From Candidatus Palauibacter polyketidifaciens (lineage in GTDB: Bacteria > Gemmatimonadota > Gemmatimonadetes > Palauibacterales > Palauibacteraceae): 64,000 nt of DNA. The stretch is taken from assembly GCF_947581785.1 (NCBI RefSeq), contig NZ_CANPVO010000013.1:62001-126000 (forward strand), written 5' to 3'. The position numbers and the translations under genes are program-made. Shown here piece by piece: positions 44,875 to 57,153 of the stretch; the first letter of the stretch is position 1, and every line of letters begins with the position of its first letter. The notes beneath the pieces were generated by a model that was not told the origin of the DNA, ran no database searches, and was given only the letters and a program-made list of their open reading frames with translations.

Positions 44875-45411
44875 ATGAAGAATGAACTACACCTTGTTCT
44901 GGCCGCGGCTTCGAGCCTCGCATTTGCCGCCATTGCGACGTCAGCTGCGGCGCAACAGATCTCCGAACAGGCTGTCATTGATGCACAGAATGCCTGGGGC
45001 GCGGGTATTGTCGCGATCGCCAGGACCCATGCCGATGGCGGCGACTATGCCGCCCGTGCAACGGAACACATCAATGATCTTTATGCATATGGCGAGACCA
45101 ACGTCATGTTCAAGCCGACCATGGCAGCGGAAGATCAGTTCCGTGAGACATTTGAGGAAGCTCTGAGCTATTTCATTGGGCAAGACGGAACGGAAGACAA
45201 GGGGTTCGCAATCTCGGGCTGGACCAACGTTCGGTGGGAGAACAACGGCATCTACACCAACGACGCCTCCGCAATGGCCATGGGCAACTACTACTTCACC
45301 GGCCCGGACGGCAACGAGACGAAGGTCGAATACACCTTTGGCTACGTCCTTGTTGGCGGTGATTTGAAGATCAATCTTCATCACTCATCGTTGCCCTACA
45401 GTCCCGAATAG
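44875..45411 (+). CDS. Secreted SnoaL-like/DUF4440-type small protein
   Basis: The predicted 178-residue exported protein has signal peptide MKNELHLVLAAASSLAFAAI ending near AAAQQ. The mature part begins ISEQAVIDAQNAWGAGIVAI and continues HINDLYAYGETNVMFKPTMA, EALSYFIGQDG, AMAMGNYYFTGPDGNETKVE and ends LKINLHHSSLPYSPE. The mix of an alpha/beta cone and the pattern of WxxGI...T.W suggest an SnoaL/NTF2-like fold. From memory, close look-alikes in alphaproteobacteria are often labelled phosphoribosyl-AMP cyclohydrolase, but no such catalytic motifs are present. Parts are below 50% G+C, far from the genome average, so recent acquisition is likely. Function unknown. Confidence 0.72.
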   Translation: MKNELHLVLAAASSLAFAAIATSAAAQQISEQAVIDAQNAWGAGIVAIARTHADGGDYAARATEHINDLYAYGETNVMFKPTMAAEDQFRETFEEALSYFIGQDGTEDKGFAISGWTNVRWENNGIYTNDASAMAMGNYYFTGPDGNETKVEYTFGYVLVGGDLKINLHHSSLPYSPE

Positions 45412-45463
45412 TCGCGAAGCCCGGCCCGGACGGAAGTGGACGGACGAAGGATCGACGCGCCCG

Positions 45464-46385
45464 CTAAGCTGACCAGGTCTCGCGGCCAACCACGACGACT
45501 CCTTCGCGCACGGTGACATCCCGGTAGAGGTCGCCGAGCCGCTTCGTGAGCGGCCCCGGCGACCCGTCTCCGATGATCCGTCCGTCGATTTCCGTCACAC
45601 TCGCGAGTTCTCCCATCGTGCCGGTGCAGAACGCCTCGTCGGCGCGGTAGGCCTCGGTTGAGGGAGAGATCCTTCACCCGGCTCGGGATGTCGTGCTCCG
45701 CGCAGAGTTCGAGCACCGTGGCGCGGGTGATCCCCTCGGGACAGGCGACGGTCCGACTCGTCATCGCGACGCCGTCGCGCACGAAGAAGAGATGGGTGGC
45801 GTTCGTCTCGGCGATGAAGCCGTTGCCGTCGAGCATCAGCGCGTCATCGGCCCCGGCCGCGTTCGCCTCGATCTTGGCCAGGATCGACTGCAGGAGGTTC
45901 GCGTGGTGGATCTTCGGATCCAGCGTGTCGGGCCCGAAGCGGCGCAGCGAACTCGTGATCAGCTTGAGGCCCGCCCGCTCGTATACCGGCGCCTTGTGCT
46001 CGGCGAGCACGATGAGCGTGGGGCCCGACCGGTTGAGGCGCGGATCCATTCCGCTGGTGACCTTCACGCCCCGCGTCAGCGTGAGCCGGATGTGCACCCC
46101 GTCGCGCATGCCGTTCGCGGCGAGCGTCCGGCGGATCTCTTCGATGATCTCCTCGTCCGGGGGGATCTCGGCGAAGGCGAGCGCCAGGGCCGAGGACCGG
46201 AGCCGGGCGAGGTGCTCCCGCAGCTTGAAGATGCGGCCGTCGTACAGGCGCAGCCCCTCCCAGACGGCATCGCCCCCCTGCACCACCGAGTCGAAGGGGC
46301 TGATGCCGGCCTCGTCCCGGTGGACCAGCGTCCCGTTGACGTTGACGATGAGATCGCGGTTTCGTTCGTTGAAGGGTTGCCGCAC
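45464..46385 (-). pseudogene. Class IV aminotransferase (branched-chain/D-amino-acid type) broken by a one-base frameshift
   Basis: PLP-dependent fold-type IV aminotransferase, start near GTG 46385 (MRQPFNERNRDLIVNVNG). The first two thirds are normal: GISPFDSVVQGGDAVWEGLR, the lysine-bearing PKIHHANLLQSILAKIEA, and DGNGFIAETNATHLFFV. At about 45655-45660 an extra base (CTCAACCGAG where CTCACCGAG is expected) throws the frame after VKDLSL. Skipping it restores TEAYRADEAFCTGTMGELAS and continues to a TAG at 45464. Without correction the frame reads nonsense to 45396. It may be a true pseudogene or a sequencing/assembly error. It lies at the edge of the conflict island. Confidence 0.85.
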
Positions 46386-46593
46386 CTCATGTCCCAATCT
46401 GACGGTCCTTGACCCCCGGCTCCTCCGGAGGTCCGCATCAGTCCCCTTGCCGACACCCACCGCAAACTGGACTCGAGGCTCAATGCTCGCCGCTGCACGC
46501 CCGCGAAGCAGACATCTACGTCAAGTCATCGCACCGCTATCGCCGTAGCGAATCCCTCTAATCGAAGCACAACGGATCGCTCAGCCTCATAGT

Positions 46594-47445
46594 TCAACCA
46601 CCCCCGCACACGGCACACGTCCCTCGTTCCCGAACGAACAAGTCCTCTGGCGGCGTCGCTCTCTTCAGGTTCATCCACGCTGACGCGTTGCCGCTTTGAA
46701 TCGCGCAGCACCGCAACCAATGTAGGAGCCGGCCGAGTCGTCGTTCCTGCATTGAACACCAAGAACTGACGGGCGCCGTGCTCTCCTCTACTCTCCTCCT
46801 CCATTCGTCCTGGAAGAGTTCTCCTAAGCAGAATTCCAACGCCCCCATCGGCGTGACGAAATAACTCGGCAGTCGCGGAATCGGCAACCATTTCGGGAAC
46901 GGCGGACTATCACGGTCTCCCAAAGCGTGCATGTGGAAGTACGGCCCGGGCGCTCCTAGCCTGCCGAGTTCGATTCGCCACATCGCGAGACGGCTACATT
47001 TGTTAGTTCCCCGCTCACCCAGATCATCACACGATACCGGTGGAGGCGTCCAATCCTCTTCCGCGTCGTCTTCATAGATGGCGATCCGCAGGGATGCCTT
47101 ACCCGAGAACGAAATTAGACGAACGTTTCGATTCGTACGCTCCCGTTGTCGCCTTCCACGCCGGCTTCCCTCTGATTCTACGCGCGAAATCTCCCAGATC
47201 CCGTCGATACACGCTCGCACTGGCCGCCCCGGACTACGATCGTAGGTGAGAGTCGGCTTCGTCCAGAGGCCTTCCAACTCAAAGGGTCTAATGTGGGCGC
47301 CCGTTGTACTTCGGATTCCCTCGATGTGCGCGGAGAACTGTTCCAGACGCCAGACCGTGTTTCGGTCGAGGACAGGTGCGGCGATTTTCTTGAAATCGTT
47401 CGCTTCTCTGGCAAGCTCCGCGATGTTGAAGTAAAGTCCTGACAT
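46594..47445 (-). CDS. Unknown protein, third member of the kinase-receiver cassette
   Basis: The 283-residue protein starts three bases after the receiver gene stop, so it is part of the same transcript. I do not recognise the family. Visible features: an N-terminal helical stretch (AELAREANDFKKIAAPVLDR), a beta-rich middle (NVRLISFSGKASLRIAIYED; MWRIELGRLGAPGPYFHMH), a distinctive block FPKWLPIPRLPSYFVTPMGA then LEFCLGELFQDEWRR, and a basic helical tail with LLHWLRCCAIQSGNASAWMN. It ends CAVCGGG. No nuclease, TM or toxin motif is evident. Base composition matches the island and differs from the core genome. It could be the effector or a specificity factor of the cassette. Confidence 0.65.
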   Translation of the reverse strand: MSGLYFNIAELAREANDFKKIAAPVLDRNTVWRLEQFSAHIEGIRSTTGAHIRPFELEGLWTKPTLTYDRSPGRPVRACIDGIWEISRVESEGSRRGRRQRERTNRNVRLISFSGKASLRIAIYEDDAEEDWTPPPVSCDDLGERGTNKCSRLAMWRIELGRLGAPGPYFHMHALGDRDSPPFPKWLPIPRLPSYFVTPMGALEFCLGELFQDEWRRRVEESTAPVSSWCSMQERRLGRLLHWLRCCAIQSGNASAWMNLKRATPPEDLFVRERGTCAVCGGG

Positions 47446-47448
47446 GTC

Positions 47449-48624
47449 TTATGCTATTCGATATTCGTCGAGAGGGTCGACGATGGCTCGCATCTCAGGA
47501 ACCTCCTCCACCGTGGATATTCTCATCCATGCCGACTCTGCGAATGCCGGCCAGTGATCTGGGCGTACGTTGACCGCATCCGACGGGGAGGTGAATCGTC
47601 CAGACGGCTGGAGGTTCTCGTCCAAGCATACGACTGGCCGGCTGATTTCAAGCAGATCTAACTCCTTGCCCGCTTTCTCGCGGAGCGCTATTCCGAACTC
47701 GCCTGAGTCTCCGCTGGATCCGGCCGTAAGTTGCCAAACGTAGTCCTCTATAGCGCCCCGCCACCACCGATCGCCGAGAAAATCTGCGAGAAGCCCCGAG
47801 TATCTTCGATCATTGAGATCTCTCCTCAAGGCAGAATCCGACACAAGGAGTTTGCGCAGGTCATCTAGCCTTAACCGAAGGCGGGCGGCCAGCCAATGTT
47901 CATCCCAAAGAAAACTAGGAAATGGAAGAATCTGATGGAGGAGCCATCGAAGGAAAAGAACGCTGCCAGCTCCTCCGGCAAGCTCATGAATGGGAGGCTG
48001 GCATTCCCGCACGTCCCGCCAGCACCGCTCGTACCAGCCGATCCCCTCGGCCAATCCCAATAGGCGTTCCGCTTGAGATTCCGAATCGCGGGGATCACTC
48101 GGCCACTCTGCAGGAAGCTTGCGCGTTGCGCGCGCAAGCTCAAGCATCTGTTCGACCCGCCGTGAGTCCTGCTTCTCAAAGACCCACTCCAAGTTATTCA
48201 GGCGGGCCAAGACATGACGGGCGCTAGAACTGGGAAGCCGAATCCTACCTTTGGCCTCGGCCAAGCGGGCGGTGTGTAGGGCGAATGCCGCCCGTTGCGT
48301 CGATGGCGGCGTGCCTCCCGGGCCCGCGGGCTTCTGGTCAACTAGCTCACGCAAGACGGTGGCTAGCGCCAAGCCTGTCTGGATCCGGAACGGCGCGTCC
48401 TGCCGATCGCGCCCCGACCAGTCGTCGAGCTTGTAGTCGACGAGCACAAGATTGGCTCGTTCAAGGTCGGCGGTATCTATGTCCGACGGATGGAGTACTT
48501 CGATGTCCGCCCGGCCGTCGAAGGCGTTTATCATTTTATTGCGGACATCATCTGGAAAATCGTCAACGATCAGCACAAAGGGCTTGCCGCCGGGATCGTG
48601 CGATGTCTTGGAGCGTTGGATCAT
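47449..48624 (-). CDS. Receiver-domain protein with large uncharacterised C-terminal region
   Basis: The 391-residue protein begins with an atypical two-component receiver: KPFVLIVDDFPDDVRNKMIN gives the acidic pair D21/D22, and ANLVLVDYKLDDWSG gives the phospho-acceptor D63. This matches the 'response receiver' class associated with conflict systems (Response_reg_2 type, from memory) rather than CheY-like regulators. Residues about 120-390 are mostly helical (RVEQMLELARATRKLP, ERLLGLAEGIGWYERCWRDV, LLADFLGDRWWRGAIEDYV) with no DNA-binding motif. Its ATG overlaps the kinase stop (ATGA). It is presumably phosphorylated by the adjacent kinase; the output is unknown. Confidence 0.78.
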   Translation of the reverse strand: MIQRSKTSHDPGGKPFVLIVDDFPDDVRNKMINAFDGRADIEVLHPSDIDTADLERANLVLVDYKLDDWSGRDRQDAPFRIQTGLALATVLRELVDQKPAGPGGTPPSTQRAAFALHTARLAEAKGRIRLPSSSARHVLARLNNLEWVFEKQDSRRVEQMLELARATRKLPAEWPSDPRDSESQAERLLGLAEGIGWYERCWRDVRECQPPIHELAGGAGSVLFLRWLLHQILPFPSFLWDEHWLAARLRLRLDDLRKLLVSDSALRRDLNDRRYSGLLADFLGDRWWRGAIEDYVWQLTAGSSGDSGEFGIALREKAGKELDLLEISRPVVCLDENLQPSGRFTSPSDAVNVRPDHWPAFAESAWMRISTVEEVPEMRAIVDPLDEYRIA

Positions 48625-50906
48625 TTCGAGAACCTGACTTCCACGGCTGTGGCGTAAGGCGGCGAAGGTTCGACAAACTGCACACCTAAGCCGTAATACT
48701 CAAGCATGCTGCGGGTGATGGTGAGGCCCAAGCCCATACCTTGGCCGAGCATTGAATCCGGGCTATCGGTGGTGGACTCGAAGGGTCGGAACCAGCGTTC
48801 AGCCTCAGCGAGGGCGACCGCAACACCCGTATTCTGTACTCGCACGCGCACACCCTTGGAATCGGAAGCGGCCGAAGCGTGGATGCGGCCTTCAGGCTTC
48901 GCCGCCTTCACTGCATTGGTCAATAGATTTGCGAAGATCGTTGACAATTCGGCCGGGAACATCGGCGGTGACTTCAGGGCCGGCGGAATGTCGGAGAGTA
49001 TCTCAACATGGTACCGTTCGGCGGAGTGCCGGACCAACCGAACGGCGGAATCGAATCGTTCAGCGATGGACTGTCGCGACCGTCGCCGTCTGGCGTTCAC
49101 AGACACTACATCCGTCAGATATGAGGCGTGCCGCTCCACGGTCTGCCGAAGATCCACCGCGACACGCCACGCCCCCTGCAGGCGCCTTCGCTCCTCGCCT
49201 AGCAGCGCCCCCTCTTCGAGAATGACCTTGAGCGATTGATCCAAGGTCTGCGCCGTGCCGAGCACGCCATTGACCTCGTGTACGAAGGCGGCCATCTGAG
49301 TTCCGACCGACGCCAAGATGCGGAGCATGGCCCCCTCCCATATGATGGTGTCGGCCCGGTCCCTAACGTGCTCCAGCGCCACGGCTGCCCTATCGATGAG
49401 GGACTCGGCCCCTTCGAGGTCGCGTTGGCTTAGAAGAGAATGGATCTCCTTGATGACCCCCTTGGCGTCCTCGATCTCGACACGGAGGGATCGGGTAGCA
49501 GCTGTGGACAGCTTCGCCTCCCGAGCGGCCGCTCGAATTGCGGCCCGTTTCTGGCGCTCCGCAAGACCGGCGGCTGCTCGCACGCGGGTGCATAAGTCCA
49601 CTCCAGTGCGAACATGATCGACGAGCGCGAGGAACCCTGCCTCCGGCACGAACCCCTCCCGGTTGACCAAGATTCGTAGAGTTGGGGCGTGTTCCTGAGT
49701 CAGGAAGACGCCGCCGAAGTAGTTGTTCTTCGGTAGGCGAGTCAGCCCCGCGTCTACATCCTTATCGCCCCACTCGGCGCTGAAGTCTAGGTCGCGAAGC
49801 AGTTCCAGTTGGCGGGGGCGGCGAGTGTAGTCGGAGTCGATCGATAGCCAGTCGTCATCACCATACGGAAGGACTCGAAACCCCTCGAGGAACACATGAA
49901 CACCACTGGCTCTCGCTGCCCACACTCGCTGATCCTGTCTCGCTCTTAAGTGACCCTCGCGAATCAAGATCCGTGCGTCAAAGCACGGCGATGAGATGGT
50001 ACGGTGCAAGGAGTTGGAGTAGCCCCGCGCGTCGGGATTCTCCTCAAGGGTCCGGCGGGTCGGCGCGATCGCGTAGACGACGTTGCTGCTGCCCGGGGCG
50101 GCACGCATCTCCACAACCCAAGTCGCCAAGTCCGCCACCAGCTCCCAGTAGTCGTCTCCCGTCTCAAAGTCGCCGTCGAGGACCACTCGAAATCCGGCTA
50201 AGGGCGAAGATTCGACCGGTGCGCCGATGTCTCGCACTTCGGGACGTTCGAAGAGAAGCGGCGCAGGAATCACGTTTTCTGGCAAAGGATCTCGGATGAA
50301 ATCCGGAGCCTGAAATGACGAGATCTCCGCCAAGAACCTGGATCGCTCGGACTCAGTCCACTTTCGCCTTAACTGCGACAACGTAAGGGTCGTCCCGGAT
50401 AGGGCATCGGGACGCGCCGCCCGCTCACCGAACAAAATCGTGCCGGGCGGGATGTCATCGAGGGTCTCGAATCCCTCAATCTTGTCCCAGTCAATGACTG
50501 CGTGCAGCGCAGTAGGACTCGTTCCCGAAGTAACGCTCTCGACCTCCAGCCTTCTGGCCAGTTTGTGGGCGGCCAAGCGACCGATCCCCTTCACGCCTGT
50601 GTAGCGTCGTCCAAACCTCGTCGAGCGCCTTGTACCCAGTTCCTTGAACCGGGATGCGACCCTCAGGAAACCGGAGATAAACTGGTCGCGAGTCATGCCG
50701 ACGCCGTTGTCCGTCACTACAATTCGACCGCTGCGAGGATCATCCAAGGACTCGCCATGGACTAGGACCTCGGTGGCGTCGGCATCGTAGGAGTTCTTGA
50801 TGAGTTCGATCAAGGCAGTCGAATCTCGCCCGACGAGGAGTTCTCCGAGTTCCCGGAACAGGTGAGTGTCAACCGTGAACCGCGGGTCTTCCGTGACGCT
50901 AGACAT
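48621..50906 (-). CDS. Dual-GHKL protein: N-terminal Hsp90/MORC-like ATPase plus C-terminal histidine kinase
   Basis: The 761-residue soluble protein carries two GHKL ATPase modules. The N-terminal one resembles Hsp90/MutL/MORC: LIELIKNSYDADA (34-44 with catalytic Glu/Asn), DNGVGM (66-71), TGVKGIGRLAAHKLA (103-117). An S5-like middle region runs to about 430. A coiled coil leads to a kinase H-box FVHEVNGVLG with His near 543, then N-box FANLLTNAVKAA (about 658-669) and G-box GMGLGLTITRSML. There are no TM helices or sensor domains, so input must come from inside the cell, for example from the ATPase clamp. Its start overlaps the methyltransferase stop by eight bases. Role in defence is inferred from context. 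Confidence 0.83.
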   Translation of the reverse strand: MSSVTEDPRFTVDTHLFRELGELLVGRDSTALIELIKNSYDADATEVLVHGESLDDPRSGRIVVTDNGVGMTRDQFISGFLRVASRFKELGTRRSTRFGRRYTGVKGIGRLAAHKLARRLEVESVTSGTSPTALHAVIDWDKIEGFETLDDIPPGTILFGERAARPDALSGTTLTLSQLRRKWTESERSRFLAEISSFQAPDFIRDPLPENVIPAPLLFERPEVRDIGAPVESSPLAGFRVVLDGDFETGDDYWELVADLATWVVEMRAAPGSSNVVYAIAPTRRTLEENPDARGYSNSLHRTISSPCFDARILIREGHLRARQDQRVWAARASGVHVFLEGFRVLPYGDDDWLSIDSDYTRRPRQLELLRDLDFSAEWGDKDVDAGLTRLPKNNYFGGVFLTQEHAPTLRILVNREGFVPEAGFLALVDHVRTGVDLCTRVRAAAGLAERQKRAAIRAAAREAKLSTAATRSLRVEIEDAKGVIKEIHSLLSQRDLEGAESLIDRAAVALEHVRDRADTIIWEGAMLRILASVGTQMAAFVHEVNGVLGTAQTLDQSLKVILEEGALLGEERRRLQGAWRVAVDLRQTVERHASYLTDVVSVNARRRRSRQSIAERFDSAVRLVRHSAERYHVEILSDIPPALKSPPMFPAELSTIFANLLTNAVKAAKPEGRIHASAASDSKGVRVRVQNTGVAVALAEAERWFRPFESTTDSPDSMLGQGMGLGLTITRSMLEYYGLGVQFVEPSPPYATAVEVRFSK

Positions 50907-52617
50907 TCGGATGAATCTCGGAAGCCGGGGCGCGCGTGCGGAAGGGGCGACGCCATTTCATCAACTTCCTGCGCTGTTCTCGAAGAGTGTTGATGTCGGC
51001 TGCACTCAGCCCGAGCCCAGCACGGAGTACATGCTTATCGGCCAAGGACCTTGCCTCCTCCTCACGACCCGCCCGAAGGAGGCGATGGATCGGCTCAAAC
51101 GCGCACTCGGCGCTTGGGACCAATGGGACCGGGAGGCGGTTCAGCGTGCCGGGCTCGATCTTGAGTACACCGCCTCCGTAACGGCGGCCGTAGAGTTCCG
51201 CCCAGAGACCGACGGCACTCGTGAGGAATCCCACGGCTACGGCCTCCGGCTCAACAGGAAGACCCTCTTTCCAGCCGACCCAGTGCATCGTGTTGGTGCA
51301 ATGGAAACCCCCTCGGTTGAGGACCAACAACGGAGGGCCCAATCGTGCGCAGGTAGCGAATGCATCTGGCGGATCGGGGAGATCGATCTGAAACCAGTCG
51401 TCCCGGAGCGCACACTTGTATCTCTGCTCGACACCGTTTTGAACACCCTCGTCGATCCATCGCTCGACCTCGGCACTTCCGCCGTTCTCCGGGGGGCGGA
51501 CCAAGAAGGCCCGACCTCCGTTCTTCGCGAGACGCTCGTGGTCGTCGGCGTCCAAGGCCAAACCTGTAAGCCACCGCGTGCGCGCTACGATGGGATGGCG
51601 CGAGGGTTCCGGCACGCCCAACTCGTCAAGGTTACGCCGAGATCGAATGAAGTGGCCGTTGGCTCCCGTTACGATGCCGACGCGCACGGTGGCGAGTTCC
51701 GAGACACGCCGAAACTCTGGACCCTCTTCAAGCCGACGCAGTAGGGCGAGCACCGCAGAATCGATTCTTCGCCCGCGCACGAGTGCGGACTGCGCTTCGC
51801 GGGATCCGTCCGAACGTGCGAGCGCGGACTCAATTTCTTCGACGGAATCGACTGCCGCTTCTCTCGACTCGCCACACTCTCCGAAACCGGAACATGCCAC
51901 GAGTACGACTGCTTCTTCGGTGCCTTCGAAGAAGCGCTCGCGGATGTGGACCAAGCGAGTGGTCGAAAACCGCTGGCGGAGGACCGCGCGCACCGGCTCG
52001 GCGTAGTCGGCCTGAAGGATCGCCTCCGGCACGAGCATCGCGAGTCGCCCGTTGACGGCGAGGTATTCCAAGGAGTGGAGAAGGAAATAAGCCCAGAGGC
52101 TGGCTGTGGCGGGCAAGTTTAGTGGCGAGGCGGCGGCCACGATCCGTGCGGTCTCGCGCTGCTCCTCCGTCATCCAGTGGTGTCGGACATACGGTGGATT
52201 GCCCACGATGGCCGCGAACGGATCCGGCGACAACTGAGCGGGCGATGTCTTCAGGAAGTCGTTGGTCGTGAAGTTGGCATCGACGAGACGCGCGTCGGAT
52301 TCCACCGCGTCGGCGCAAGCGCCATCAATGTCAACTCCGTACAATTGCTCATATGGGCCTTCGATGCCGCGCTCCGCGAGTACGTGAGCGGCCGCGTCCA
52401 CGAAGGCACAGCCTCCGTAGCTTGGGTCGAGGAGTGGTCCGGTTCGGTCGCCCAAAGCCCACCGAGCCATCGTAGTCGCTACGTCACGGGGCGTGTAGTA
52501 CGCGCCCAAGCGCCGACGACGGCTGACTTGTGAGCCCGCCAAGGTTGACTGCGCATCAGGTGTCGTACCGGACGCAACCTCTGGCGCGGCCTGCTCTTCA
52601 ACCACGGTTGGAGTCAT
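50899..52617 (-). CDS. N6-adenine DNA methyltransferase (Eco57I/class I type) without nuclease domain
   Basis: The predicted 572-residue protein starts at ATG 52617, with GAGGGAGG just upstream. Methyltransferase motifs in gamma order: GAYYTP (motif X, 38-43), LLDPSYGGCAFVDAA (motif I), YGVDID (motif II) and NPPYVRHHW (motif IV catalytic, 140-148). Residues from about 330 form a target-recognition-like region (VRVGIVTGANGHFIRSRRNL; GVLKIEPGTLNRLPVPL). The N-terminus has no PD-(D/E)XK domain, so unlike type IIG enzymes it cannot cut DNA itself. It heads a four-gene coupled cassette with the kinase, receiver and unknown protein, in a restriction-modification neighbourhood. Confidence 0.87.
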   Translation of the reverse strand: MTPTVVEEQAAPEVASGTTPDAQSTLAGSQVSRRRRLGAYYTPRDVATTMARWALGDRTGPLLDPSYGGCAFVDAAAHVLAERGIEGPYEQLYGVDIDGACADAVESDARLVDANFTTNDFLKTSPAQLSPDPFAAIVGNPPYVRHHWMTEEQRETARIVAAASPLNLPATASLWAYFLLHSLEYLAVNGRLAMLVPEAILQADYAEPVRAVLRQRFSTTRLVHIRERFFEGTEEAVVLVACSGFGECGESREAAVDSVEEIESALARSDGSREAQSALVRGRRIDSAVLALLRRLEEGPEFRRVSELATVRVGIVTGANGHFIRSRRNLDELGVPEPSRHPIVARTRWLTGLALDADDHERLAKNGGRAFLVRPPENGGSAEVERWIDEGVQNGVEQRYKCALRDDWFQIDLPDPPDAFATCARLGPPLLVLNRGGFHCTNTMHWVGWKEGLPVEPEAVAVGFLTSAVGLWAELYGRRYGGGVLKIEPGTLNRLPVPLVPSAECAFEPIHRLLRAGREEEARSLADKHVLRAGLGLSAADINTLREQRRKLMKWRRPFRTRAPASEIHPNV

Positions 52618-52666
52618 GGCCTCCCTCGAAGGTCCGTGCGGGGCGGAAGCGGTAAGCCCCGTAACG

Positions 52667-53884
52667 CTACGAGGAATCTGAAGCGGGTGCCAACCCGACC
52701 AAGCCACTTGTCGGACCGGCGGGATCCCTATCGCCGTACAGGATCGAGACGATTTCCGCCGCGGGAAGCGCGCGGACACGCCGGGCCAGTCGGTATCGTC
52801 GCATACCAGCGTGGACGATATCAAGGCGGTCGAGGTTCAGCGTCTCCAGCGCCGACCGCATGGATCGAGTGAGCCGGGGCGCTTCCGAGCGCTTGACCTC
52901 GAAGCCGTAGCGCCGCGCTCCGTCCATCACGAGGAGGTTGAGTTCCGCCCCCGTGTGCGTGGACCAGTGGAAGCACCGCTCCGGCGACGCCCGCAGCAGA
53001 TGGGCGATCTGCTGGATGATAAACCCTTCCCACGAGGCCCCCACCTTGGGATGCGACACGACATCCGTCCGGTTGGTAAGCCCGAGCAGCGCGTGCAGGA
53101 TGCCCGAGTCGCCGATGTAGACCTTCGGGGATCGCACTTGGCGCCTGCTGATGTTCTCGAACCAGGGCTGGAGCTGCCGCACCACGAAGACCGAGGTCAA
53201 GAGGTCAAGGTACCGCCGGACCGTCGCGTGGGAGACGCCGAAGGCGCGCGCGAACTCGGCGCCATTCCAGATCTGTCCGTGCCAGTGCGCGAGCATCGCC
53301 CAGAAGCGGCGGAGCGTCGCCGATGGGATGGTGCTCCCGAGTTCCGGGAGGTCCCGTGCCAAGAGCGTACGGATGAACCCGTCGCGCCAGCGGCGGCTGG
53401 CGGGTTCGGACCGGGCGAGGTACGAGCGCGGGAATCCACCGCGCAGCCAGAGTCGCTCCAAGTCCTCCACCTCGGCGAGGCCGAAGCCGTCGAGTTCGTG
53501 GAACGCGACGCGGCCGGCGAGCGACTCCGACGTCTGCCGCAGAAGTTCGGGCGAAGCGCTTCCCAGCACGAGGAAGCGGGCCGGAGGACCGGGGCGGTCC
53601 GCGAGGACGCGCAGGAGCTGGAAGATGTCGGGCAGCCGGTGGACCTCGTCCAGAACCACGAGGCCCGCGAGCGGCCGCAGTTCTAGCCCGGGATCTTCCA
53701 GCCGTGCTAGATCGGCGGGATCCTCCAGGTCGAACCAAGCCACGGGCTCGGAATACGCCGCCGCCAGTTGCCGGGCGAGCGTGGTCTTCCCCACCTGCCG
53801 CGCGCCCAGCAGGGCGACGACGGGGAACTCTCCCAGCAGCAGCCGGACGCGGCTCAAATCGTGCTCTCGGGTGATTGCCATCAT
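52667..53884 (-). CDS. AAA_14/DUF4143 family ATPase
   Basis: The 405-residue protein has two adjacent start codons (ATG 53884, 53881). N-terminal ATPase domain: Walker A LLGARQVGKTTLARQL, AWFDLEDPADLARLEDP, Walker B GLVVLDEVHRLPDIFQLLR and sensor FLVLGSASPELLRQTSESLA. The middle winged helix (NGAEFARAFGVSHATVRRYL) and C-terminal DUF4143 nuclease-like fold (KVGASWEGFIIQQI, TGAELNLLVMDGARRYGFEVK, with the D/E...E-V-K arrangement) are intact. These orphan ATPases are common in accessory regions and their role is unclear. The start codons fall inside an inverted repeat, and the stop lies 49 bases before the methyltransferase. Confidence 0.9.
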   Translation of the reverse strand: MMAITREHDLSRVRLLLGEFPVVALLGARQVGKTTLARQLAAAYSEPVAWFDLEDPADLARLEDPGLELRPLAGLVVLDEVHRLPDIFQLLRVLADRPGPPARFLVLGSASPELLRQTSESLAGRVAFHELDGFGLAEVEDLERLWLRGGFPRSYLARSEPASRRWRDGFIRTLLARDLPELGSTIPSATLRRFWAMLAHWHGQIWNGAEFARAFGVSHATVRRYLDLLTSVFVVRQLQPWFENISRRQVRSPKVYIGDSGILHALLGLTNRTDVVSHPKVGASWEGFIIQQIAHLLRASPERCFHWSTHTGAELNLLVMDGARRYGFEVKRSEAPRLTRSMRSALETLNLDRLDIVHAGMRRYRLARRVRALPAAEIVSILYGDRDPAGPTSGLVGLAPASDSS

Positions 53885-53921
53885 TGAAATATGACTGGTT
53901 ACCGATCAGATTTCAATGATG
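53879..53921. promoter_or_regulatory. Perfect 12-bp inverted repeat over the DUF4143 ATPase start codons
   Basis: CATCATTGAAAT (53879-53890) and ATTTCAATGATG (53910-53921) are perfect inverted copies separated by 19 bases. The left arm contains both candidate ATG codons of the minus-strand ATPase. At DNA level it could be an operator for autorepression. In the mRNA it would fold into a hairpin that hides the start codons. No Shine-Dalgarno sequence is visible upstream of them. Confidence 0.65.
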
Positions 53922-54088
53922 TGGCATCCGCCCGTTGCATTCTGGAATGCTCGATGGTCTGGGCCGGGGTACGATCGGCTCGCCGAGACGAAAATGTCCC
54001 GCATGACCTCGACCTCGGCCTTGCCGGCGGGAGAGAAATGTGACATTCTGTCGTCACCGTCCAAACTCTCCGCTTGTCGAGGCCAGCC

Positions 54089-55366
54089 ATGTCCGCTCTC
54101 AGCCCGAGAGAACTTCGAGATCTTCGGGAAAGGCTCGGTTTCTCCCAAGGCGAGCTCGCGGACTGGCTCGCAGTAAGCCGACGGACGATTCAGCGATGGG
54201 AGAACGGCGACACGGCTCCGAACCATGCTACGGTGCTTGTTCTCCGCCGAGCCGCTGGCCGATCGGGCTCTCTTGGTATCGACGCACCAAGCTCCTCCGA
54301 CTTCACGTTCATCGATCTATTCGCCGGCATCGGCGGCATGCGCATCGGTTTCGAGGCGAACGGTGGGCGGTGCATCTACACCTCCGAGTGGGACCGGTTC
54401 TGCCGGCAAACGTACACGGCGAACTTCCCCACGACTCACGCGATCACCGGGGACATTCGCGACGTTGGCACATCTGACATCCCCTCTCACAACCTTCTGC
54501 TGGCCGGATTTCCGTGCCAGCCGTTCTCGGTCGCAGGCGTGTCCAAGAAGAATTCGCTTGGTCGACCTCATGGTTTTGCCGACGAGACGCAGGGAACGCT
54601 GTTCTTCGACATCGCACGAATCCTGCGGGATCGCCGACCGACTGCTTTTCTCCTCGAGAATGTGAAACATCTCCGGGGCCACGATCAGGGCCGTACGATG
54701 GACGTGATTCTGAGAACCTTGGAAGATGAGTTGGGTTATGTCGTCACCACTCGCGTAATCGACGCGAAATCGTTCCTGCCGCAGCACCGCGAGAGAATCT
54801 TCATCGCGGGCTTCGCAGAAGACACCGGCTTCTCGCTGGAGGCCCTCGAACTCCCTGACTCGACAAGAGGACCGAAGCTCGAGAGCGTACTGCATTCGGA
54901 GGATGGTACCGAGGAGGCGGAACCGCCGTTCACGGAAGGCGAACTCGCTGCGGTGTCGGGGAAGTACACGCTAAGCGATCACCTCTGGTCCTACCTGCAG
55001 GAGTACGCACGCAAGCATAGGAGCCGCGGCAACGGATTCGGCTTCGGGTTGGTCGGTCCGGCGGACACGGCGAGGACGCTTTCCGCGCGATACTACAAGG
55101 ACGGATCGGAGATTCTCATCCGCCAGAACGGCTCGAACCCGAGACGGTTGACCCCGCGGGAGTGCGCCCGGCTAATGGGCTTCGATGGACCCGGCCAGAA
55201 CGAATTCGAGATTCCAGTGTCGGATACCCAGGCGTACAAGCAGTTCGGCAATGCCGTCGCAGTGCCCGTCGTTTCCGCGATCGCCGCCGCGATGGCCCCC
55301 CACATCGTTTCGCTGGCCACCACTTCCGATCAGCTCGAGTTCATGCCCAGACTCCAGACCGCCTGA
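54089..55366 (+). CDS. DNA (cytosine-5) methyltransferase, EcoRII/Dcm type, with N-terminal HTH
   Basis: The predicted 425-residue enzyme starts at ATG 54089, GAGG six bases upstream. Residues 5-55 form an Xre-type HTH (LGFSQGELADWLAVSRRTIQ), as in several Dcm-like enzymes, where it can autoregulate expression. Catalytic motifs: DLFAGIGG (motif I, 76-83), GFPCQPFS with nucleophile C143, ENV at 190-192, QHRERIFIAG (motif VIII), and motif X FGNAVAVPVV. It protects DNA from the EcoRII-like endonuclease encoded two genes downstream, so the expected target is CCWGG, by inference from those partners. Confidence 0.93.
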   Translation: MSALSPRELRDLRERLGFSQGELADWLAVSRRTIQRWENGDTAPNHATVLVLRRAAGRSGSLGIDAPSSSDFTFIDLFAGIGGMRIGFEANGGRCIYTSEWDRFCRQTYTANFPTTHAITGDIRDVGTSDIPSHNLLLAGFPCQPFSVAGVSKKNSLGRPHGFADETQGTLFFDIARILRDRRPTAFLLENVKHLRGHDQGRTMDVILRTLEDELGYVVTTRVIDAKSFLPQHRERIFIAGFAEDTGFSLEALELPDSTRGPKLESVLHSEDGTEEAEPPFTEGELAAVSGKYTLSDHLWSYLQEYARKHRSRGNGFGFGLVGPADTARTLSARYYKDGSEILIRQNGSNPRRLTPRECARLMGFDGPGQNEFEIPVSDTQAYKQFGNAVAVPVVSAIAAAMAPHIVSLATTSDQLEFMPRLQTA

Positions 55367-55368
55367 AG

Positions 55369-55803
55369 ATGACAGACATCGTAGACGCACGAACCCGTAG
55401 TGCGATGATGGCGGGGATCCGTGGCAAGGACACGAAGCCCGAGATGCTCGTTCGCCGCTTTCTCCATCGCTCCGGCTTCCGCATCCGGCTTCATCACAAG
55501 GATCTGCCGGGACGACCAGACATCGTTTTGTCGAGATTTCGGACGGTCGTCGAAGTAAGGGGCTGCTTCTGGCATCGGCACGAGAACTGCCCTTTCGCCT
55601 ACATGCCGAAGTCGAACCGCGAGTTCTGGGAAGCAAAACTGAATGGGAATCGTGACAGAGATCTGCGTAACCGCCAGCTGCTCAAGGAGTTGGGTTGGAA
55701 GACCATCGAAGTCTGGGAGTGCGAACTTGGGGACGATCAGGTGCTGGAGGAGCTACCCGACCTCATCCGGGCCGGGCCTGTTGGGCTCCGTGGCCCCTCA
55801 TGA
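55369..55803 (+). CDS. vsr: Very short patch repair endonuclease Vsr
   Basis: This 144-residue endonuclease nicks beside T:G mismatches that arise by deamination of 5-methylcytosine. It has GIRGKDTKPEMLVRRFLHRS, GRPDIVL with metal-binding D51, VEVRGCFWHRHENCPF giving C66, H69, H71 and C74 (zinc and active-site residues), and SNREFWEAKLNGNRDRD. Length and residue numbers match E. coli Vsr. It begins two bases after the methyltransferase stop, as expected for its repair role at methylated sites. Confidence 0.95.
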   Translation: MTDIVDARTRSAMMAGIRGKDTKPEMLVRRFLHRSGFRIRLHHKDLPGRPDIVLSRFRTVVEVRGCFWHRHENCPFAYMPKSNREFWEAKLNGNRDRDLRNRQLLKELGWKTIEVWECELGDDQVLEELPDLIRAGPVGLRGPS

Positions 55804-55833
55804 GCGAACACCTCCTGTATTCTGGCTAGCTCC

Positions 55834-57051
55834 ATGAAGCGCGGAGAACTGCGGGACTACTTCCTGGGGATTGGCGCAAAGTACCTGTCCGCGGTCGATG
55901 CTGAACCAAAAAAATCAAACCAGCATGAGATCGGTGTGACAGCGTTAATGCGTGAGCAGTTCCTCGGAAGTGAGCGAAGGCGCTTTGTCGTCCGGTATGT
56001 CTGGCTGGGACAGGGTTCGGAGACGCTCACGGCCTACGACACTGCCACCTACTACGACACCCGAGAAAACCAGCCTCACCGTCGCCCGGAATGGCGGCTC
56101 TATTACCCCGCCAACGCCGTCACGGAATCCATGAACGCGGGCGACACGTTATTCCTCGGGCTGCGCAAGGATGGAGCCCTCTACTTCATCGTGTGCCCAC
56201 GCGGATCGACCAGCGAACAGCAGCTTTCGTGGCTCTTTGGTGTGCGCGCCGACGAGTCCTTCGTATCGCGAGATGTTCGCAGCGGCGAGCCCGAATTGGG
56301 TTTCGCCGCCGGATTCATCTTCGACGAACTCGGGATCGAGTTCGAAGAACCTTATGAGGCCGAACTCGACTCACTTGTCGAGGGATATGGTACCACGTTC
56401 CCGAAGACGGCTGAGTTTTCGGAACTCGCGCGCCGGAGCCTCTTTGATGTCGTGAGTCCCGAGGAAGACCCCGACGCTGCTCTTCTTGCTTGGTTGGATC
56501 ATGAGGAAGCTCTGTTCCGATGTCTCGAGAGGAGAGTCGTTGCCGACCGTATCGAGCGCGGCTTTGTACGAGAAAGTGGAGTCGATGTCGACGGTTTCCT
56601 AGGCTTTTCTCTTAGCGTCCAGAATCGACGGAAGTCACGAATGGGCCATTCCCTAGAGAACCATGTGGAGGCGATTCTCGTGGCGGCCAAGATCTCGTAC
56701 GTCCGCGGAGCCGTGACGGAGCACAATCACAGGCCGGATTTCCTGTTTCCCGACTCGGACGCATACCACGCCGCACCGGCCGGCGGGTCGGCATGCTTGG
56801 CGATGCTCGGAGTCAAGTCGACGTGCAAAGAACGCTGGCGTCAGGTGTTGGCCGAAGCCGAGAAAATCCCTCGAAAACACCTGTTGACGCTGGAGCCAGG
56901 GATATCCGAGCCTCAGACGCACCAGATGGATGCGTCCAACCTGCAACTGGTTGTTCCACGCGCCATCCATGCGAGCTACACCGATGAGCAACAGGGATGG
57001 CTGTGGAGCCTAGGGGAGTTTATTCGACACGTCGAGCGTGCGCCGGGATGA
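55834..57051 (+). CDS. EcoRII-type (type IIE) restriction endonuclease
   Basis: The 405-residue protein is the same size as EcoRII (404). The N-terminal effector-DNA-binding B3-like domain covers about 1-180 (RRRFVVRYVWLGQGSETL; RRPEWRLYYPANAV). The C-terminal PD-(D/E)XK domain shows GHSLENHVEAIL, RPDFLFPDSDAY with D302, and LGVKSTCKERWRQVL with K328 and K332, then KHLLTLEPGIS and LQLVVP. All catalytic residues of EcoRII are present, so it should cut before CCWGG (family knowledge; not tested). It closes a three-gene methyltransferase-Vsr-endonuclease operon, 30 bases after vsr. Confidence 0.93.
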   Translation: MKRGELRDYFLGIGAKYLSAVDAEPKKSNQHEIGVTALMREQFLGSERRRFVVRYVWLGQGSETLTAYDTATYYDTRENQPHRRPEWRLYYPANAVTESMNAGDTLFLGLRKDGALYFIVCPRGSTSEQQLSWLFGVRADESFVSRDVRSGEPELGFAAGFIFDELGIEFEEPYEAELDSLVEGYGTTFPKTAEFSELARRSLFDVVSPEEDPDAALLAWLDHEEALFRCLERRVVADRIERGFVRESGVDVDGFLGFSLSVQNRRKSRMGHSLENHVEAILVAAKISYVRGAVTEHNHRPDFLFPDSDAYHAAPAGGSACLAMLGVKSTCKERWRQVLAEAEKIPRKHLLTLEPGISEPQTHQMDASNLQLVVPRAIHASYTDEQQGWLWSLGEFIRHVERAPG

Positions 57052-57153
57052 TGGCACGTTGACGGGGGTCCGTAGGTTCGGGACGGGTCGAGCAGGCGCC
57101 GGGGCGGGAGCCCTCGCTCGTTCGCGAACCTTCACGGGAGTCTCAGCGACACC

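What the first reader, a model, noticed from the sequence alone, without database searches (positions are those of the whole stretch)
48621..50906. One polypeptide with two GHKL ATPase modules
N-terminal ELIKNSYDADA/DNGVGM/TGVKGIGR motifs indicate an Hsp90/MORC-like clamp; C-terminal HEVNG, NLLTNAVKAA and GMGLGLTI motifs indicate a histidine kinase. Such a clamp-plus-kinase fusion with no TM helix suggests the ATPase clamp is the sensor.
Basis: partly seen in the sequence, partly recalled or inferred. Interest (0 to 1): 0.72.

Follow-up and report, generated by a model that had tools for sequence, protein, structure and literature searches.

The report
Clamp-fused histidine kinase in methylase operon
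A bacterial gene fuses an Hsp90-like ATP-driven clamp to a soluble histidine kinase; this architecture was already described next to restriction-modification genes, but here it belongs to a divergent branch locked into a four-gene operon with an adenine DNA methylase, a receiver-like protein and a protein of unknown fold, probably a DNA-surveillance and defence module.

Summary
The 761-aa ORF (48621-50906, minus) has two separate Bergerat/GHKL modules: an N-terminal HATPase_c_3 clamp with an Hsp90-type second domain, and a C-terminal DHp-CA histidine kinase (Pfam E 4.7e-18 and 2.5e-20). AlphaFold2 gives both folds (mean pLDDT 85). All aligned relatives keep both ATP sites and the phospho-acceptor His543.

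The architecture is not new. HATPase_c_3 + HEF_HK + HATPase_c proteins, beside a receiver-like gene and R-M systems, were described in 2021 (PMC8011034), which also suggested the clamp as sensor. This protein and its receiver-like neighbour fall outside those Pfam models but are homologous to family members.

New here: a divergent branch in which kinase and receiver-like protein are always adjacent (32/32 loci), nearly always with an Eco57I-type N6A methyltransferase (31/32) and a third gene, either a conserved protein of unknown fold (24) or, in actinobacteria, a PIN-nuclease-like protein. The window's copy lies in a ~10.7 kb island absent from relatives.

Best reading: a methylation-linked phosphorelay defence module. 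The clamp-as-sensor idea and any DNA sensing remain inference.

The parts
48621..50906 (-). clamp-HK gene, 761 aa: Hsp90/paraMORC-like GHKL clamp + S5-like domain + helical linker + DHp + CA
50475..50819 (-). clamp GHKL domain (HATPase_c_3, residues 30-144), N-box E34/N38/D41, G1 D66-G68-G70, G2 G104-K106-G107-G109
49647..50189 (-). S5-like second domain of the clamp (about residues 240-420) with invariant R416 in the NREGF loop (resembles the Hsp90 catalytic-loop Arg; inference)
49104..49418 (-). DHp helices (residues 497-564 and 570-601) with invariant phospho-acceptor H543 (49278-49280)
48630..48950 (-). HK catalytic domain (HATPase_c, residues 653-759); N-box N660/N664, G2 G723-G727; G1 box is N-T-G instead of D-x-G
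47449..48624 (-). receiver-like protein, 391 aa; D21-D22 and D63 invariant, K151 nearly invariant; overlaps the HK gene by 4 bp; own conserved C-terminal domain
46594..47445 (-). 283-aa conserved protein of unknown fold, candidate effector
50899..52620 (-). Eco57I-type gamma-class N6-adenine methyltransferase (NPPY); listed ORF begins 52824, likely start MTPTVV near 52620; overlaps HK by 8 bp
46385..57115 (.). approximate insert (~10.7 kb) absent from congeneric genomes G035 and G029, carrying this operon, an AAA_14/DUF4143 gene and a Dcm-Vsr-EcoRII-C R-M system

Best explanation
A cytoplasmic two-component module built into a methyltransferase-marked defence (R-M-like) operon. Shown: the protein has a complete Hsp90/paraMORC-type ATP clamp (GHKL + S5-like domain) joined by helices to a complete DHp-CA histidine kinase; the next gene encodes a receiver-like protein with DD/D/K residues; both are encoded with an N6-adenine methyltransferase and a conserved third protein, as one mobile unit. 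Inferred: the clamp dimer closes with ATP on a cytoplasmic ligand, most likely DNA or a nucleoprotein state linked to the methyltransferase's self-mark. Closure or hydrolysis re-orients the DHp helices, H543 is phosphorylated and passes the phosphate to D63 of the receiver-like protein, whose C-terminal domain switches on the third gene product (the P283 protein here, a PIN-like nuclease in actinobacteria) against foreign DNA or the infected cell.
For: Two GHKL modules, by HMM, invariants and fold. H543 invariant in 46 proteins and D21/D22/D63 invariant in 33 receiver-like proteins. Receiver-like gene directly 3' of the kinase in 32/32 window-type loci and at least 47/49 other relatives. Receiver profile aligns full length to those of the other relatives, E 3.1e-20, one of whose kinases (L053) passes the HEF_HK cut-off. 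Eco57I-type methyltransferase beside it in 31/32; P283 in 24, PIN-like protein in the actinobacterial ones. Distances of the four proteins correlate (Mantel r 0.80-0.93). Overlapping genes. Patchy: 2 of 43 genomes of the order, absent at this site in relatives. Published R-M association of HEF_HK/Response_reg_2 pairs (PMC8011034) and of paraMORCs (PMC2292703).
Against: No experiment on any member was found. P283 has no recognisable nuclease motif or known fold, so the effector step is a guess. The receiver-like protein does not reach the Pfam Response_reg or Response_reg_2 cut-offs, and its structure was not predicted. The G1 box has N instead of D in every window-type kinase, although ThkA, a kinase of known structure, also has NSG there. 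DNA or methylation sensing is not shown. The Mantel test cannot separate co-inheritance from interaction.
Confidence: 0.5

Rival explanations
1. Regulatory reading: the kinase and receiver-like protein are a transcriptional control circuit that adjusts expression of the methyltransferase and the linked R-M genes, like a C protein, and are not part of the immune machinery.
For: Receiver plus C-terminal domain is the usual layout of response regulators; weak, non-significant similarities of the C-terminal half to HTH-type families.
Against: No significant DNA-binding domain in 33 homologues. The third gene is as tightly linked as the pair and is replaced by a PIN-like protein in one clade, a pattern of effectors. 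An ATP clamp is an odd input for expression control.
Confidence: 0.2
2. R-M engine reading (Iyer et al. 2008): the clamp is a paraMORC/MutL-like DNA-looping ATPase of a restriction system, and the kinase-receiver part is a phosphorylation brake on restriction, not a sensor relay.
For: Best sequence match of the clamp is the N-terminus of BbrUII/HgiDII restriction enzymes (E 7.4e-24); paraMORCs occur in R-M operons and were proposed to loop DNA; methyltransferase in 31/32 loci.
Against: No helicase and no recognised endonuclease in the window's four-gene unit. His and Asp phosphotransfer residues are invariant, so phosphotransfer is not a dispensable add-on.
Confidence: 0.22
3. The kinase half is a pseudo-kinase: two ATPase modules used structurally, without phosphotransfer, since the G1 Asp is replaced by Asn.
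For: N[TS]G in place of D-x-G-x-G in all 31 window-type kinases aligned and L034, while the other relatives keep D.
Against: H543, both N-box Asn and the G2 glycines are invariant; ThkA has NSG at the same position; the neighbouring protein keeps its acceptor Asp.
Confidence: 0.08

Closest known systems
HATPase_c_3 + HEF_HK + HATPase_c proteins ('group 1') with Response_reg_2 partners (Bellieny-Rabelo et al. 2021, PMC8011034; PF19191/PF19192)
   Same: Same order of the two GHKL modules around a DHp, soluble, receiver-like gene adjacent, R-M neighbourhood; a relative (L053) aligned along its whole length passes the HEF_HK cut-off.
   Different: The window kinase has no HEF_HK hit at E<=1 and its partner no Response_reg_2 hit; G1 box N instead of D; linked to an Eco57I-type methyltransferase and P283/PIN-like protein rather than mainly C5 methylase + Vsr.
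paraMORC GHKL-S5 ATPases of R-M operons (Iyer et al. 2008, PMC2292703), and the N-terminus of BbrUII/HgiDII restriction enzymes (NF050001)
   Same: N-terminal GHKL + S5-like clamp with intact ATP motifs, next to methyltransferase genes.
   Different: C-terminal kinase instead of a nuclease domain; no SF2 helicase in the operon.
Hsp90/TRAP1/HtpG
   Same: Fold of N-terminal + middle domains, including an invariant Arg in a (N/S)RE loop.
   Different: No Hsp90 C-terminal dimerisation domain; about 13% identity; fused to a kinase.
Canonical DHp-CA histidine kinases (ZraS, ThkA, HK853)
   Same: DHp-CA fold and catalytic His, N and G2 boxes.
   Different: No membrane or PAS-type sensor; an ATP clamp sits in the input position; G1 box N-T-G (shared with ThkA's NSG).
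Detocs (defence two-component system; from my own knowledge, no paper on its mechanism read here)
   Same: Two-component logic recruited for phage defence.
   Different: Detocs as I recall it has no ATP clamp and no methyltransferase; no homology to it was tested.

Membership tests
HEF_HK / Response_reg_2 two-component-like family (PMC8011034) | N-terminal HATPase_c_3 and C-terminal HATPase_c around a DHp | tested here: met
HEF_HK / Response_reg_2 two-component-like family (PMC8011034) | PF19191 HEF_HK match in the DHp | tested here: not met
   No hit at E<=1; 3 of 46 aligned proteins at E<=0.1; L053 passes the cut-off, L044 just below
HEF_HK / Response_reg_2 two-component-like family (PMC8011034) | Adjacent receiver-like gene matching PF19192 | tested here: inconclusive
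   Adjacent receiver-like gene with DD/D/K present, homologous to partners of other relatives; no PF19192 match in the genome at E<=1
HEF_HK / Response_reg_2 two-component-like family (PMC8011034) | R-M genes in the neighbourhood, no TM segments | tested here: met
paraMORC ATPases | N-terminal GHKL with intact motifs followed by an S5-like domain | tested here: met
paraMORC ATPases | Operon with SF2 helicase and/or nuclease and methylase | tested here: inconclusive
   Methyltransferase yes; no helicase and no recognised nuclease in the four-gene unit
Histidine kinases (DHp-CA) | H box, N box, G1 and G2 boxes | tested here: met
   H, N and G2 invariant; G1 is N[TS]G instead of D, as in ThkA
Histidine kinases (DHp-CA) | Autophosphorylation and phosphotransfer | not testable with these tools
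   needs protein assay
Type II restriction-modification system | Methyltransferase plus cognate restriction endonuclease | tested here: inconclusive
   N6A methyltransferase present; no recognised endonuclease in the four-gene unit

The most novel reading that the evidence does not exclude
A defence system in which DNA-methylation status is read by an Hsp90-like ATP clamp and converted by His-Asp phosphorelay into activation of an exchangeable effector (a protein of a new fold, or a PIN-like nuclease): restriction-modification logic run through two-component signalling.
Probability: 0.25. Interest if true: 0.8.

Novelty: new variant of a known kind. Interest (0 to 1): 0.45.

Why it matters
Clamp-kinase and receiver-like pairs beside DNA methylases are widespread (Proteobacteria, Bacteroidetes, Actinobacteria, Acidobacteria, Planctomycetes, Gemmatimonadota, archaea), yet I found no experimentally assigned function for any of them. 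This branch gives a compact, mobile four-gene version with an exchangeable third gene, which makes the question 'does a two-component relay execute restriction or abortive infection?' directly testable in a laboratory strain. It would also be a case of an ATP clamp serving as the input domain of a histidine kinase.

Tried and rejected
Chance or mis-framed ORF: rejected by E-values, homologues and the model. Membership in a PADLOC-named system: only partial matches to restriction-enzyme N-termini and weak PDC-M43B hits. Recent defence papers (BREX-related, DefensePredictor): no description of this system in the passages read; DefensePredictor's figure legend lists HATPase and REC domains among untested predicted systems. 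P283 as a known nuclease: no Pfam hit, no PDB sequence hit of weight, no fold match (best E 0.12), no similarity to the PIN-like proteins. Using the Enterobacter plasmid receiver (L086, Response_reg E 2.6e-6, just under the cut-off) to bridge to the window's receiver-like protein: profile comparison was too weak. Comparison with the more distant receiver set A5 gave only 48% probability. A second copy in the host genome: only weak hits confined to the kinase half. Pseudo-kinase from the G1 Asn: made less likely by ThkA.

Full report
OBSERVATION. The ORF at 48621..50906 (-) encodes 761 aa. Pfam finds HATPase_c_3 at residues 30-144 (E 4.7e-18) and HATPase_c at 653-759 (E 2.5e-20). All 46 aligned proteins (the window's and 45 homologues, 21-62% identity) hit both families, and the ATP-site residues of both modules are invariant: clamp E34, N38, D41, D66, G68, G70, G104, K106, G107, G109; kinase H543, N660, N664, G694, G723, G725, G727. 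AlphaFold2 on the 46-row alignment gives mean pLDDT 85.1 and shows two GHKL sandwiches, a second alpha/beta (S5-like) domain in the clamp, a run of helices from residue 423, and the two DHp helices 497-564 and 570-601 with H543 in the first. Foldseek against the PDB aligns the model on one side to Hsp90/TRAP1 N+middle domains (E 2.5e-11, about 463 columns) and on the other to DHp-CA kinases such as ZraS and HK853. The profile aligns H543 to the catalytic His of ZraS and ThkA. No TM-like segment. pTM is only 0.63, so the mutual placement of the two halves is not established.

PRIOR KNOWLEDGE. This architecture is published. Bellieny-Rabelo et al. 2021 (PMC8011034) described HATPase_c_3 + HEF_HK + HATPase_c proteins (174 of 222 in their set), soluble, next to Response_reg_2 receiver-like genes (91.6% linkage in 644 regions) and enriched near R-M systems. 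They speculated that HATPase_c_3 sits in the sensor position. Iyer et al. 2008 (PMC2292703) described paraMORC GHKL-S5 ATPases in R-M operons. The window kinase itself has no HEF_HK match at E<=1; 3 of the 46 aligned proteins match at E<=0.1, L053 above the cut-off. The receiver-like neighbour has no PF19192 match. Because the kinase aligns full length to L053 and the receiver-like profile aligns full length to the receiver-like partners of those relatives (E 3.1e-20), I treat the pair as a divergent branch of the same wider family, outside the present Pfam models.

THE OPERON. Directly 3' and overlapping by 4 bp is a 391-aa protein with the receiver signature: D21-D22 and D63 invariant in 33 homologues, K151 nearly so. 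It is adjacent to the kinase in all 32 window-type loci, and a receiver-like ORF follows the kinase in at least 47 of 49 more distant loci, read by eye from the N-terminal Asp-rich start. Upstream, overlapping by 8 bp, is an N6-adenine methyltransferase with NPPY and an M.Eco57I C-terminal domain. Such a methyltransferase is beside the pair in 31 of 32 window-type loci (not L020): upstream in one subclade, and of a more divergent type downstream in another (in one search the window's own 'MT down' label is a coordinate artefact of its minus strand). Downstream of the receiver gene is a 283-aa protein (P283), homologous in 24 window-type loci; L006 ends before that point, and the seven actinobacterial loci have at that place a shorter protein with PIN-like motifs (DTGPLL ... 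E ... GESE ... NE/DE), whose three PDB hits include PIN proteins but below significance. A plasmid of Rhizobium sp. TH2 has a P283 relative plus a GIY-YIG nuclease gene after the pair. Pairwise distances of the four proteins over 22 loci correlate strongly (Mantel r 0.80-0.93, permutation p 0.0005), which shows co-inheritance but not physical interaction.

P283. AlphaFold2 is fairly confident (pLDDT 80.4, pTM 0.83): N-terminal helices, a long antiparallel sheet, C-terminal helices. No PDB fold match (best E 0.12), no Pfam match, no similarity to the PIN-like proteins. Conserved residues (T62, W84, G115, P166-G167, H171, PR-P at 190-193, E209, W215, W229, W243, W257, K261) do not form a nuclease motif that I recognise. 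That it occupies the place taken by a PIN-like protein elsewhere suggests, but does not show, an effector role.

MOBILITY. The window region 44-58 kb is GC-poor (0.60-0.66 against about 0.70). Only 2 of 43 genomes of the order have the kinase, and a same-species genome lacks it. In congeneric G035 and G029 window positions ~46,370-46,384 are followed by ~57,034-57,115 with no copy of the operon between: 126 bp in G035, under 2 kb in G029; so about 10.7 kb is an insert here. In G031 the AAA_14/DUF4143 gene is present at this site without the kinase, and a 61%-identical kinase with its methyltransferase, receiver-like and P283 neighbours lies on another contig; similarity there ends near the edges of the four-gene unit. 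The four genes are thus a separable mobile unit, and the Dcm-Vsr-EcoRII-C system (54074-57051, +) is an independent neighbour.

A BRANCH-SPECIFIC FEATURE. All 31 window-type kinases aligned, and L034, have N[TS]G in the kinase G1 box where the other relatives have D. ThkA, a histidine kinase of known structure, has NSG there, so I do not read this as loss of activity, but it may change nucleotide binding.

MECHANISM. Shown: domain content, conservation, gene linkage, mobility. Inferred: clamp closure on a cytoplasmic ligand, H543 phosphorylation, transfer to D63, activation of the third protein, protection linked to the methyl mark. Rivals are a transcription-control circuit, a DNA-looping restriction ATPase with a phosphorylation brake, and a pseudo-kinase. 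No computation here separates the relay from the first two rivals; the assays under next steps would.

VERDICT. Observation confirmed; interpretation partly supported and partly anticipated in the literature. New variant of a known kind; the operon, with its exchangeable third gene and unknown fold, is the more interesting part.

Noticed in passing
54074-57051 (+): Second, separate R-M system in the same island: HTH-fused C5 cytosine methyltransferase, Vsr nickase, and a restriction enzyme with an EcoRII-C domain.
   Followed up: partly
52667-53884 (-): AAA_14/DUF4143 ATPase matching PADLOC candidate PDC-S01; in congener G031 it is present at this site without the kinase operon.
   Followed up: partly
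46370-57115: Island boundary: congener G035 joins window ~46,370 to ~57,115 with 126 bp between; the left edge falls at the 5' end of an aminotransferase-like ORF, 45396-46460 (-).
   Followed up: partly
46594-47445 (-): Conserved 283-aa protein of unknown fold, confident model with no PDB match; candidate new effector or nuclease family.
   Followed up: partly
L027:11521-12141 and corresponding genes in L025-L031, L085: PIN-like proteins in the place of P283 in actinobacterial operons.
   Followed up: partly
L084:12109-13038: GIY-YIG nuclease family protein with DUF4357 following the clamp-kinase operon on a Rhizobium plasmid.
   Followed up: no
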